In this document: positions 1-47,941 of the stretch, piece after piece | How positions within the stretch are numbered: the first letter of the stretch is position 1 | Layout: each line of letters begins with the position of its first letter | From: Gammaproteobacteria bacterium | GTDB taxonomy: Bacteria; Pseudomonadota; Gammaproteobacteria; Thiohalospirales; Thiohalospiraceae | Length of the DNA stretch: 47,941 nt | Direction of reading: 5' to 3' | Assembly: GCA_024277595.1 (NCBI GenBank) | Contig: JAJRUV010000094.1 | Coordinates: 1 to 47,941, forward strand | Program-made: the position numbers and the translations under genes | Notes under the pieces: model-generated | Seen by the model: only the letters and a program-made list of their open reading frames with translations | The model's database searches: none | Told to the model about the DNA's origin: nothing

Positions 1-21
1 ATCTATAGTTCAAGCTACTGG

Positions 22-46
22 ATTCCGGCTAAAATCATGCCGGAAT
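22..46. repeat. Small perfect inverted repeat (8-bp arms)
   Basis: ATTCCGGC at 22-29 pairs with GCCGGAAT at 39-46 around a 9-nt loop. The stretch looks like the short dyad repeats scattered between genes in many gammaproteobacteria. Apart from this and the mobile repeat at 107-258, nothing gene-like was seen in bases 1-320. Confidence 0.5.
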
Positions 47-106
47 GGCGCGATTTTTAGTTGTGTGTCCGTTTTTAGATGAAATATTGCTTAACCCGAG
101 TTCAGG

Positions 107-258
107 TTAACTATTCAGTTCACCCCTGAAGTTCGTCAGTTTAAGGCGAAAAATGTGAGTGTACATGGGTAAATGATCATTTTTTAACGCAGAACTGACG
201 GATTCCAGGGGTAATCTGAACAGTTACATACTCATTTTCAACTATGCTGAATAGTTAC
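107..258. repeat. MITE-like repeat, copy 1
   Basis: This 152-bp element is an imperfect palindrome. The core (107-227) has arms of about 32 nt that begin (t/g)taactattcag and contain CCCCTG, around a centre with the palindrome AAATGATCATTT. A 31-bp extension (228-258) repeats the tip once more and ends in gaatagttac. Copies 2 and 3 lie at 10671-10825 and 12657-12808. Here the extension is on the right; in the other two it is on the left. Bases 216-258 match the reverse complement of 10671-10713 with one mismatch. No 8-bp target duplication is visible around this copy. Confidence 0.85.
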
Positions 259-10670: not shown

Positions 10671-10825
10671 GTAACTATTCAGTATAGTTGAAAATGAGTA
10701 TGTAACTGTTCAGATTGCCCCTGAAATTTGTCAGTTCAAGGCGAAAAATGTGAGTTTACACGACGGGTAAATGATCATTTTTTAACGCAGAAATGGCAAA
10801 TTTCAGGGGTGAGCTGAATAGTTAC
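10671..10825. repeat. MITE-like repeat, copy 2
   Basis: This 155-bp copy has a 31-bp extension with its own tip at 10671-10701 and a core at 10702-10825. The tips read gtaactattcag (outer left), gtaactgttcag (inner left) and gtaactattcag (right, inverted). The centre is in the same orientation as in copy 1, but the arm sequences and the extension are on opposite sides. No 8-bp flanking duplication is visible (ccctgatt / ccccggtt). It separates the glnK control region from the 3' side of dciA. Confidence 0.85.
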
Positions 10826-12617: not shown

Positions 12618-12656
12618 TATGCCAGTAGACAGTATTGCTGTATTATTACCTTTTTT

Positions 12657-12808
12657 GTAACTACTCAGCGAGTAGTCAATATTGCCGGTAACTGCTCAGC
12701 TTACCCCTGAAATTCGTCAGTTCAAGGCGAAAAACGGGAGTTTACATGTGTAAATGACCATTTTTTAACGCAGAAATGGCGGACTTCAGGGGTAAGCTGA
12801 GTAGTTAC
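12657..12808. mobile_element. MITE-like repeat, copy 3, with 8-bp target duplication
   Basis: This 152-bp element is flanked on both sides by an exact 8-bp direct repeat, CCTTTTTT (12649-12656 and 12809-12816). That fixes the mobile unit as core plus 31-bp extension. Tips are gtaactactcag (12657), gtaactgctcag (12688) and the inverted copy ending at 12808. The arms are nearly perfect over about 25 nt. IS66-family elements make 8-bp duplications and start GTAA; the inner tip matches the IS66 end at 47705 at 10 of 13 positions. No protein is encoded. It ends 32 nt before the secA start. Confidence 0.85.
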
Positions 12809-12840
12809 CCTTTTTTAATTAATAAACGATATGGGCATCC

Positions 12841-38914: not shown

Positions 38915-40966
38915 ATGTCATTTGATGCAGACGAAGATATCTTGCAGGACTTTCTGGTTGAGGCTGGAGAGATTTTGGAACAATTGGGTGAGCAGCTGGT
39001 TGAGCTGGAACAGAAACCGGATGATGATGGTCTGCTCAATGCGGTGTTCCGTGGTTTTCATACCATCAAGGGAGGAGCCGGGTTTCTTAATCTTATCCCG
39101 TTGGTTGAGGTATGCCATCGCGCCGAGGACGTATTCAACATTCTCCGCAGCGGGGAGCGTAAGGTTGATTCCGGATTGATGGATGTTATTCTGCCGGTAG
39201 TGGATGTGTTGAACGAGATGTTTGACAGCGTGCGATCTGGTGTTGAACCTGATTCCGCCAGCCCCGAACTGTTACAGGCCCTGGAGCGTTTAATTGGAGA
39301 TGAGTCTCCGGATGGGCATCAGAGTGCCGAACAGCCTGTTGTAGAGAAAACCGAACCGGTTGCCGATAGCGTTGAACAGGAGTTCGATGCCATGCTCGAA
39401 GCACTGGATAAACCTGCTGAAGCGGGCAAAGCGGCAGATGACGAGATTACCCAGGAAGAGTTTGATGCCCTGCTGGATCAGTTGCATGGCGAAGGTGGCG
39501 CCCCTGGTAAAGAAACGGAACCGGCTTCTTCCTCAAACAAGGAAAAACCTGCTGGTGACGACATTACCGAGGAGGAGTTTGATTCCCTGCTGGATCAGCT
39601 GCACGGCAAAGGTGGTGCTCCCGGTATTCCAGCCGCTCCCCAGTCTGAACAAACCAAACCGGCAGCCCAGAACCCTGTCGTGGAAAAACCTGATGATTCG
39701 GTATCAGAAACCTCTTCTCCAACGGAAATAAAACCCAAAAAACCGGCCCCCAAGATGAAGCAGGATGTTGCTCCGGTTGAGGCTACAGTGCGGGTGGATA
39801 CCCGGCGCCTGGACGGAATTATGAACATGGTGGGCGAACTGGTATTGGTGCGTAACCGGCTGGTGAACCTGGAAAGTGAACTGGACAATGAAAATGTAGC
39901 CAAGGCGGTCGGTAATCTGGACGTGGTGACCGCTGATCTGCAAGCCGCTGTGATGAAGACGCGCATGCAGCCAATCAAAAAAGTTTTTGGCCGTTTTCCG
40001 CGAGTGGTGCGTGATCTGGCCCGGAATATGAAAAAAGAGATCAACCTTCAGCTGCAGGGAGAGGACACTGATCTGGACAAAAATCTGGTAGAGGCATTGG
40101 CGGATCCGCTGGTGCATCTGGTGCGAAACTCGGTTGATCATGGAATTGAGTCACCTGAAGAGCGTGAGAAAAAGGGGAAACCACGTGCCGGTACGGTAGT
40201 TCTTTCTGCCGAGCAGGAAGGGGATCTTATCCTGCTGACCATCGAGGACGATGGTGCCGGGATGGATCCGGCCAAACTGCGCGCCAAGGCAATTGAAAAA
40301 GGTGTCTTGGATGAATCTACCGCGGCACGGATGGATGATCGAGAGAGCTTCAACCTGATCTTCATGCCCGGATTTTCAACCAAAACCGAGATCTCGGATG
40401 TATCCGGTCGGGGTGTGGGCATGGACGTGGTCAAGACCAGTATCAGCCAGTTGAACGGCAGTATCGAGATAACTTCTGCTGTTGGTGAGGGTACCCGTCT
40501 GACCATCAAGGTGCCACTGACCCTGGCCATCATTCCCACACTGATGGTGGTGTTGGGGCAACAGGTGTTTGCTCTGCCGCTGGTCAATGTCAGTGAGATT
40601 TTTGATCTGGATCTGAGTAGCACCAACATGGTGGATGGACAGCGCGTAGTAATGGTGCGTGATACCGCATTGCCACTGTTTTATCTCAACAACTGGCTGA
40701 TTGATGACCGAACGGCCGCTACCGATGAGGAACCGGTTTCCGCCCATGTGGTGGTGGTACATGCCGGTACGCAGAAGGTCGGGTTTGTTGTCGATCAGTT
40801 GATTGGTCAGGAGGAGGTGGTGATCAAACCTCTGGGGGCGCTGTTGCACGATGTTGCCGGCCTGGCCGGAGCGACCATTACCGGCGATGGCAAGATCTCA
40901 TTGATTCTGGATGTCCCGGGGCTGTTGCGCAGACATGCCAAAACCGGGCAGCGGCGGGTGGCATGA
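38915..40966 (+). CDS. cheA: Chemotaxis histidine kinase CheA
   Basis: This 683-residue kinase reads chemoreceptors and phosphorylates CheY and CheB. P1 has the phosphoacceptor His49 (FHTIKGGAGFLN). P3 dimerisation, the P4 ATPase (N box LVRNSVDHGIE, DDGAGMD, GRGVGMDV) and the P5 CheW-like domain follow. Residues 130-285 are a Pro/Glu/Lys-rich linker with no clear P2 domain. The linker carries repeats: EQEFDAMLEAL (154-164), TQEEFDALLDQLHG (179-192) and TEEEFDSLLDQLHG (218-231). These resemble the FliM and CheZ peptides that bind CheY. Confidence 0.96.
   Translation: MSFDADEDILQDFLVEAGEILEQLGEQLVELEQKPDDDGLLNAVFRGFHTIKGGAGFLNLIPLVEVCHRAEDVFNILRSGERKVDSGLMDVILPVVDVLNEMFDSVRSGVEPDSASPELLQALERLIGDESPDGHQSAEQPVVEKTEPVADSVEQEFDAMLEALDKPAEAGKAADDEITQEEFDALLDQLHGEGGAPGKETEPASSSNKEKPAGDDITEEEFDSLLDQLHGKGGAPGIPAAPQSEQTKPAAQNPVVEKPDDSVSETSSPTEIKPKKPAPKMKQDVAPVEATVRVDTRRLDGIMNMVGELVLVRNRLVNLESELDNENVAKAVGNLDVVTADLQAAVMKTRMQPIKKVFGRFPRVVRDLARNMKKEINLQLQGEDTDLDKNLVEALADPLVHLVRNSVDHGIESPEEREKKGKPRAGTVVLSAEQEGDLILLTIEDDGAGMDPAKLRAKAIEKGVLDESTAARMDDRESFNLIFMPGFSTKTEISDVSGRGVGMDVVKTSISQLNGSIEITSAVGEGTRLTIKVPLTLAIIPTLMVVLGQQVFALPLVNVSEIFDLDLSSTNMVDGQRVVMVRDTALPLFYLNNWLIDDRTAATDEEPVSAHVVVVHAGTQKVGFVVDQLIGQEEVVIKPLGALLHDVAGLAGATITGDGKISLILDVPGLLRRHAKTGQRRVA
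39374..39607 (+). repeat. Repeated CheY-docking-like motif inside cheA
   Basis: Three copies of (E/T)(Q/E)EEFD(A/S)(L/M)L(D/E)xL occur in the linker of CheA; the last two are followed by HG(E/K)GGAPG. The last two are 71% or more identical over about 20 residues, so a recent duplication is likely. Compare SQDEIDALLHG in FliM and QDEVDDLLSSL in CheZ of the same window. Confidence 0.7.
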
Positions 40967-46891: not shown

Positions 46892-47584
46892 ATGAAAAAT
46901 CACCTAAAATTGTTATCTTCGGGGCTGGGGGTAGTGGTTCTTGTTGGGATGCTGTTTCCCGCAAGCACTGTATATGCCAGTATTGTTGCAACTAAACATA
47001 ATCTTTGAATTACCGGTACGGGAGCGGTGAAATCTACCGATGAAACAGAAGTTTGTATATTTTGTCACACGCCTCACCAGGCAATAAAAAATGATAATAT
47101 TCCGTTGTGGAATCATGATTTGTCGGCAACGGCCGGTTATGGGGTTTATACCAGTCCCACCTTTGATGGTGCCTTGAGTGCTGCAGACTTGGGGGGAACA
47201 AATGCAGCTACCGCTGCAATAAGCAATTTATGTCTATCCTGTCATGATGGCACTATCGCCATTAACTCCCTGAATAATCCCTCCAATGCAACAGGCGGCA
47301 ATCCAACCATGACCGGTACGGGTGCCGGGGGAGTGATGCCGGCAGGTACCTCCAATATAGGTGCGGATTTGACTGACGATCATCCGGTTAATTTTCGCTA
47401 TGACGCGGCGTTATTTGCTGCAGATAACTCCCTGCATGATCCTTCCGGGTTAACAGGGGTAAGATTGTTTAACGGGTTTATACAGTGCGCATCCTGTCAT
47501 GATCCCCATGAGAGCACCAATTCAACGTTCTTGCGCGTAGACAATACAGGTAGTGCTTTATGCCTCAAGTGCCATAACAAATAA
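46892..47584 (+). pseudogene. Tetrahaem c-type cytochrome, interrupted by in-frame TGA
   Basis: A good ribosome-binding site (GGGGGAGGAGCG) leads into an ATG at 46892 and a clear signal peptide (about 1-30, ending TVYA). Codon 39 is TGA (47006-47008), after SIVATKHNL. The same frame then continues for 191 codons, ITGTGAVKSTDETEVCIFCH onward, with four CxxCH haem sites: CIFCH, CLSCH, CASCH and CLKCH. Relatives often read HNLS here, so a TCA-to-TGA change is likely. A GTG at 47027 could start a leaderless version that would not be exported. It resembles paired-CxxCH cytochromes used in periplasmic electron transfer. Confidence 0.8.
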
Positions 47585-47704: not shown

Positions 47705-47941
47705 GTAAGCGCTCAACGAAGCACAGGGTTGTTCAACAGCTCTTGAGCTGATCCTGGTTGATATTGCCTGGCAACAATGCTTCGATGGCCTCAACCGTTT
47801 CCGCTTTTGGTAATTCAGTGAACAGATAACGCAGATAAGCATACGGTTCCAGTCCGTTGGCCTTGGTGGTCTCAATCAGTGAGTACAGATTAGCACTGGC
47901 TTTCATACCCTTGATCGATGCACTGAACCGCCAGTTTTTCC
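47705..47941 (-). mobile_element. IS66-family element, right-hand part (continues beyond window)
   Basis: The end GTAAGCGCTCAACGAAGC at 47705 has the GTAAGCG start usual for IS66-family terminal repeats. It lies 28 nt past the transposase stop. The 8 bases outside (TTTCAACA, 47697-47704) should be repeated at the far end if this insertion is intact. The tip shares 10 of 13 positions with the inner tip of the small repeat at 12688. Confidence 0.8.
47733..47941 (-). CDS. IS66 family transposase, C-terminal part
   Basis: Sixty-eight codons and a stop are visible, read on the minus strand from the window edge. The sequence KNWRFSASIKGMKASANLYS followed by LIETTKANGLEPYAYLRYLF and EAIEALLPGN is the conserved C-terminus of IS66 TnpC-type transposases. 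The gene is cut by the window edge, so intactness cannot be judged. Confidence 0.9.
   Translation of the reverse strand, partial: KNWRFSASIKGMKASANLYSLIETTKANGLEPYAYLRYLFTELPKAETVEAIEALLPGNINQDQLKSC

What the first reader, a model, noticed from the sequence alone, without database searches (positions are those of the whole stretch)
12649..12816. Miniature mobile element with exact 8-bp target duplication and IS66-like tips
Copy 3 of the 152-bp repeat is bounded by CCTTTTTT on both sides. An 8-bp duplication and a GTAA tip are IS66-family traits, and an IS66 end lies in this window at 47705 with 10 of 13 tip positions in common. This points to a non-autonomous element moved by an IS66-type transposase. 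Such small derivatives are little described for IS66.
Basis: partly seen in the sequence, partly recalled or inferred. Interest (0 to 1): 0.65.

Follow-up and report, generated by a model that had tools for sequence, protein, structure and literature searches.

The report
Miniature transposon family moved by IS66-type transposase
A 152-base, gene-less mobile element, present in about a hundred copies in this bacterium and also in distant relatives, carries the ends and the 8-base target duplications of a single-gene branch (ISBst12) of the IS66 transposons, and its self-complementary core has been kept by evolution even while its sequence changed.

Summary
Window 12657-12808 is a 152-bp element flanked by CCTTTTTT on both sides, and it belongs to a real miniature-transposon (MITE) family. 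Of 91 copies tested in three genomes, 47 have exact 8-bp duplications and 65 have at most one mismatch, against 2-3 by chance; no other length is enriched. Related species have an empty site upstream of secA. The tips match at 12-13 of 13 the single-gene ISBst12 group of IS66. A motif-free search of 80 such loci found 26 elements with exact 8-bp duplications, all with this tip or a one- or two-base variant. The MITE shares only 13-20 bp with them, so it is no simple deletion derivative. Three features are unusual: a third, inner tip copy at a fixed 31-bp offset; a core hairpin with compensatory changes and one-strand G-U pairs in spreading lineages but not in individual copies; and presence in 10 gammaproteobacterial families in the sample. 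Movement by an ISBst12-type transposase is inferred; the hairpin's role is unproven.

The parts
12657..12808 (+). 152-bp miniature element (MITE), subfamily A
12649..12656 (.). target-site duplication, left copy CCTTTTTT
   Evidence: single copy of the equivalent site in sister species
12809..12816 (.). target-site duplication, right copy CCTTTTTT
12657..12668 (+). outer left tip GTAACTACTCAG (cleaved end)
   Evidence: identical to ISBst12-type IS tips
12688..12699 (+). inner tip copy GTAACTGCTCAG, fixed 31-bp offset, G at position 7
   Evidence: G7 in 34/36, 25/25, 17/17 copies; conservation 0.95 vs 0.62 for the spacer; absent from IS ends
12797..12808 (-). right tip (GTAACTACTCAG on the - strand)
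12688..12808 (+). 121-bp quasi-palindromic core forming a long hairpin (whole element -75.4 kcal/mol, z = -13)
   Evidence: compensatory changes
10671..10825 (+). another copy (155 bp), eroded duplication CCCTGATT/CCCCGGTT
107..258 (-). another copy, subfamily B; tip interrupted by another repeat
1..106 (.). end of a second repeat family (TTAACCYGARYTCRGGTTAA ends) inserted in the tip of the copy at 107-258
47705..47941 (-). end of a classic IS66 element (tip GTAAGCGCTCAAC, TnpC C-terminus); not the matching partner

Best explanation
The feature is one copy of an abundant MITE family whose tips are recognised by single-gene IS66 transposases of the ISBst12 group. Such a transposase, supplied in trans by an intact element now scarce in or lost from this genome, binds the outer tips GTAACTAYTCAG, joins the element to a new site and leaves 8-bp duplications. 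Shown: the element, its boundaries, the 8-bp duplications, the empty site, and tip identity with ISBst12-type elements that make the same duplications. Inferred: that this transposase moves it. Also inferred, with lower confidence: the inner tip (same motif, fixed spacing) is an extra transposase-binding site, and folding of one strand of the core helps propagation, because pairing is kept in spreading lineages but not in individual resident copies.
For: 8-bp duplications in 47/91 copies exact and 65/91 within one mismatch, with no other length enriched. A motif-free search for inverted repeats plus an 8-bp duplication around ISBst12-type genes returned 26 elements with exact duplications (about 17 different ones; nine are copies in one Paraglaciecola genome), all with GTAACTAYTCAG or a one- or two-base variant. 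The same tip with duplication ATTTTCAT occurs in Geobacillus, and ISDge4 of Deinococcus, seen to transpose, has TIR GTAACTGCTCAGCA and an 8-bp repeat (PMC12898284). Tip position 8 changes in concert (T or C) at all three MITE tips and at both IS ends in 42 of 45. The classic IS66 tip matches only 9/13. The genus has ISBst12-type remnants with matching tips, and the own genome has a relic of that protein. Empty secA-upstream site in sister species. Insertions avoid genes: 15/79 inside an ORF of at least 200 aa against about 80% of random positions. Hairpin: 14 pairs with double-sided changes, 0/500 shuffles as high. G-T:A-C 70:6 in family representatives against 27:31 in private changes.
Against: No intact ISBst12-type element was found in the own genome, and none in MITE-rich relatives such as G020, G001 and G007; repeats collapse in these assemblies, so absence is weak evidence. 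The MITE shares only 13-20 bp with any such IS, so descent from one is not shown. Transposition was not observed. The pair counts are not phylogenetically independent: the G-U excess rests on about six positions of the outer stem.
Confidence: 0.85

Rival explanations
1. A MITE moved by the classic three-gene IS66 element present in the same genome (end at 47705).
For: Same family and 8-bp duplication length; GTAA start and several shared tip positions; the only IS66 with near-complete transposase parts in the own genome.
Against: Tip GTAAGCGCTCAAC differs at positions 5, 6, 7 and 12 from the MITE tip, while ISBst12-type elements match at 12-13 of 13. Several MITE-rich relatives have no IS66 transposase hit of any kind.
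Confidence: 0.06
2. A hairpin repeat maintained because its RNA helps the host (mRNA processing or stability, like Neisseria Correia/NEMIS elements), with mobility incidental.
For: Very stable hairpin, compensatory changes, strand-biased G-U pairs, intergenic location; the window copy lies just upstream of secA.
Against: Private changes in individual copies show no G-T over A-C preference (27:31), and orientation relative to neighbouring genes is random. Selection is thus seen on spreading lineages, not on resident copies.
Confidence: 0.15
3. Arm similarity reflects templated correction of a palindrome during replication rather than selection on folding.
For: Palindromes can be homogenised by strand switching; double-sided changes could arise in one step.
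Against: It does not predict long-held one-strand G-T pairs (six positions with frequent G-T, none with frequent A-C, in the outer 36 pairs).
Confidence: 0.25

Closest known systems
ISBst12 group of the IS66 family (ISBst12, ISDge4 and the 1.55-1.76-kb single-gene elements found here)
   Same: Tip GTAACTAYTCAG(C), 8-bp duplication, both ends changing together at tip position 8
   Different: Those encode a 450-480-aa transposase; the MITE has no gene, shares only 13-20 bp with them, and has an inner tip and a palindromic core they lack
Classic IS66 elements (TnpA/TnpB/TnpC, e.g. the end at 47705)
   Same: GTAA start, same family, 8-bp duplication (family trait; ISPpa5a and ISPpa7 in PMC3281130)
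   Different: Tip GTAAGCGCTCAAC, 9/13 match; several genes
Correia/NEMIS elements of Neisseria (PMC2649163)
   Same: About 150 bp (size from general knowledge), many copies, inverted repeats and a conserved core
   Different: Different tips and transposase link (general knowledge); no RNase III or IHF evidence here
MITEPsy1/MITEPsy2 (P. syringae, PMC3189936), MITECca01 (Cardinium, IS982; PMC9769881), MITEPye1 (Paracoccus, IS1182; PMC11578231)
   Same: Bacterial MITEs assigned to an IS by tip identity and target duplication
   Different: Other IS families; MITEPsy1 duplicates 4 nt; MITECca01 is restricted to one strain and keeps parental sequence next to its left repeat

Membership tests
MITE (non-autonomous miniature inverted-repeat transposable element) | Short, no transposase gene, terminal inverted repeats | tested here: met
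   152 bp, inverted 12-13-bp tips
MITE (non-autonomous miniature inverted-repeat transposable element) | Target-site duplication of constant length in many copies | tested here: met
   8 bp only; 47/91 exact, 65/91 within one mismatch
MITE (non-autonomous miniature inverted-repeat transposable element) | Empty sites in relatives | tested here: met
   secA-upstream site without element in G001 and G003-G007; G004 and G005 align closely around the site
IS66 family, ISBst12 group (as its non-autonomous relative) | Tip sequence shared with autonomous members | tested here: met
   12-13 of 13 positions
IS66 family, ISBst12 group (as its non-autonomous relative) | Same 8-bp target duplication as autonomous members | tested here: met
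   26 IS copies exact, Geobacillus, ISDge4
IS66 family, ISBst12 group (as its non-autonomous relative) | Internal deletion derivative sharing subterminal sequence with an autonomous parent (common but not required for a MITE) | tested here: not met
   No match of 30 bp or more to 86 IS loci; only 13-20 bp, mostly at the ends
IS66 family, ISBst12 group (as its non-autonomous relative) | Mobilised in trans by an ISBst12-type transposase | not testable with these tools
   needs a mobilisation assay
Classic IS66 (TnpABC) derivative | Tip shared with the classic IS66 in the same genome | tested here: not met
   9/13
Correia/NEMIS-like functional RNA repeat | Transcribed and bound or cut by RNase III | not testable with these tools
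   no expression data

The most novel reading that the evidence does not exclude
A new architecture of bacterial MITE: three transposase tips in one element (two in direct repeat 31 bp apart) plus a one-strand hairpin core required for propagation, not derived from its helper IS, and carried as a conserved unit across many gammaproteobacterial families. This would make it an independent parasite of ISBst12-type transposases rather than a broken IS, and would imply that ISBst12 transposition (or its control) senses a folded single strand or RNA.
Probability: 0.25. Interest if true: 0.75.

Novelty: new variant of a known kind. Interest (0 to 1): 0.52.

Why it matters
IS66 transposition is poorly understood, and no MITE linked to it was found in the literature held here. 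This family gives roughly 100-200 natural substrates per genome with exact boundaries, so tip recognition, target choice and the inner tip can be tested directly. Its conserved folded core, spread over many bacterial families without an obvious parental IS, raises the question of what a MITE needs beyond its tips. It also helps to explain contig breaks and repeat-rich intergenic regions in these genomes.

Tried and rejected
Classic IS66 at 47705 as partner: rejected by tip comparison. Autonomous element inside the fetched DNA: a scan for tip pairs with exact 8-bp duplications up to 8 kb gave only MITEs, short forms (62, 69, 109 and 121 bp), MITEs carrying other repeats (199 bp) and two repeat-filled elements of 955 and 1008 bp with no recognisable transposase. 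Known RNA family: only sub-threshold miRNA hairpin models, i.e. chance. Host-gene orientation bias: none. Plasmid, phage and IMG/VR occurrence: none found with the queries used. A first intergenic test was miscoded and redone. A naive symmetric pairing over the whole core gave no strand bias because the register shifts near the apex; the test was then restricted to the outer 36 pairs, a choice made.

Full report
Observation. The stretch 12649-12816 reads CCTTTTTT, a 152-bp element starting GTAACTACTCAG and ending CTGAGTAGTTAC, then CCTTTTTT. Two more copies lie at 107-258 (-) and 10671-10825 (+). The genome G000 (2.5 Mb in 196 contigs) holds at least 41 distinct scored copies and 276 exact matches to GTAACTRYTCAG against none for the reversed pattern. 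With about three tips per copy this is roughly one hundred copies. Sister species G003 has 611 tip matches, roughly two hundred copies.

Target duplications. I extracted 91 copies with both flanks from G000, G003 and G020 (a different family of the same class). At a length of 8, 47 pairs of flanks are identical and 65 differ at no more than one position. Shuffled pairs give 0.4-0.7 exact and about 0.8-1.0 within one mismatch per genome, and lengths 4-7 and 9-12 are not enriched. Some copies without a duplication are explained by a second repeat inserted at their right tip: past that repeat, L070 shows the exact duplication AAAAATTC and L066 nearly the expected one. Six sister species have no element at the secA-upstream site; G005 and G004 align closely with the joined flanks of the window copy (GTATTATTA-CCCTTTATTTC-AATTGACAAACGA in G005) and show one copy of the target. 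This settles insertion at 12657 with duplication.

Which transposase. The classic IS66 in this genome (end at 47705; TnpB_IS66, zf-IS66, DDE_Tnp_IS66 and DDE_Tnp_IS66_C) has tip GTAAGCGCTCAAC, 9 of 13 with the MITE tip. In sister species G003 and G002, IS66 gene remnants with tips GTAACTATTCAGC and GCTGAATAGTTAC were found. Intact relatives are single-gene elements of about 1.7 kb coding for a DUF6444 + DDE_Tnp_IS66 protein. A scan of named genomes gave 80 loci. A search around each gene for any 12-bp inverted pair with an 8-bp duplication, without assuming a motif, returned 27 candidates: 26 with an exact duplication, all with GTAACTAYTCAG tips or a one- or two-base variant of it, and one weaker match (L138) that is probably false. 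Nine of the 26 are copies of one element in Paraglaciecola and two are copies in one Bathymodiolus symbiont, so there are about 17 different elements. Geobacillus L060 gives GTAACTATTCAGCC with duplication ATTTTCAT. ISDge4 of Deinococcus geothermalis, filed in the ISBst12 group because it has one ORF, was seen to transpose, with TIRs GTGACTACTCAGCA and GTAACTGCTCAGCA and an 8-bp repeat (PMC12898284). Tip position 8 is T at both ends in 31 and C at both ends in 11 of 45 such elements. The MITE has the same two states in concert at its tips, subfamily A with C and B with T. Movement by an ISBst12-type transposase is therefore the best reading; it is inferred, not shown.

Anatomy. Each element has an outer left tip, a 19-bp variable spacer, an inner tip copy exactly 31 bp from the left end, and a 121-bp quasi-palindrome from the inner tip to the right tip. 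The inner tip is as conserved as the outer ones (0.95 against 0.96 and 0.94; spacer 0.62). It has its own signature: G at position 7 in 76 of 78 copies, and A at position 13 in 69 of 78, where the outer tips mostly have A and C or T. It does not occur near the ends of the autonomous elements. Rare 121-bp elements bounded by the inner tip also have exact duplications (L102, L221), so it can act as an end. BLAST finds only 13-20 bp in common with the autonomous elements, mostly at the tips, so the MITE is not a simple deletion derivative of any of them.

Hairpin. The element folds at -75.4 kcal/mol, z = -13.0. Across 18 and 16 representatives, 14 pairs have double-sided changes and no shuffle of 500 reaches the observed values; sliding the partner by one column halves the cells paired. 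In the outer 36 pairs, whose register is fixed by the end-to-end palindrome, family representatives hold 70 G-T cells and 6 A-C cells, with six positions where G-T is frequent and none where A-C is. Private changes in single copies of G000 and G003 are 27 G-T and 31 A-C. The counts share ancestry, so the nominal Fisher p (4e-9) overstates the case; a sign test on the six positions gives about 0.016. Taken at face value, folding of one strand (RNA or single-stranded DNA) is kept in lineages that spread but not in resident copies. Neighbouring-gene orientation is random. I therefore favour a role in propagation over a host role, at low confidence; palindrome homogenisation is the main rival for the double-sided changes.

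Distribution. Seven sister species of the genus carry it. In a sample of 369 genomes of the class, 25 match at E <= 1e-5: 19 by long matches, in 10 families (own included), and six only by a 39-bp piece of the apex. The 152-bp three-tip form with exact duplications occurs in several of these (L219, L220, L225, L226, L227). Named metagenome genomes of Thiomicrorhabdus, Enterobacterales and Methyloprofundus carry diverged relatives together with an ISBst12-type gene. It was not found in phage or plasmid records or in IMG/VR with the queries used. Insertions avoid genes: 15 of 79 fall in an ORF of at least 200 aa, against about 80% of random positions.

Literature. Full-text searches for IS66 with MITE, MITEs or miniature found papers on other IS families only. 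The library holds open-licence papers only, and ISfinder could not be queried, so a description elsewhere remains possible.

Verdict. Observation confirmed. Interpretation partly right: IS66 family yes, but the ISBst12 single-gene branch, not the element at the window end. It is a new MITE family with an unusual three-tip design, filed as a new variant of a known kind.

Noticed in passing
window 1-110; L066 3124-3322; L070 4269-4467: A second repeat family of about 199 bp with ends TTAACCYGARYTCRGGTTAA is found several times inserted at the same place, the right tip (AGTTAC) of the MITE; it looks like a second MITE with a target preference for the first.
   Followed up: partly
L053 1024-2699 (G003): The ISBst12-type transposase relic is broken off in front of a Y1 (REP-associated type) transposase gene (PF01797), next to short CACACATGGG-like repeats.
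   Followed up: no
L044 1480-1540 and 39-bp hits in G032, G179, G286, G346, G202, G044: The hairpin apex (AAAATG..GAGTTTACANNNNGTAAATGA..CATTTT) recurs in a different palindromic repeat of other gammaproteobacteria (seen in L044) that lacks the GTAACTAYTCAG tips; possibly a shared module.
   Followed up: partly
L111 1355-1553 and 2508-2706; L120 7994-8948; L102 5827-6834 (G020): Some MITE copies carry inserted pieces of other repeats (e.g. a 47-bp piece with CTACATCCATGTAGG), and two reach about 1 kb with exact 8-bp duplications, i.e. the tips can carry cargo without a transposase.
   Followed up: partly
window 46893-47584: A multihaem-cytochrome-like gene (CxxCH motifs) has an in-frame TGA shortly after its signal peptide; pseudogene or sequence error.
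   Followed up: no
window 39428-39626: Two 82-nt direct repeats 117 nt apart inside a long ORF (38915-40966), 83% identical; a repeated acidic segment of one protein.
   Followed up: no
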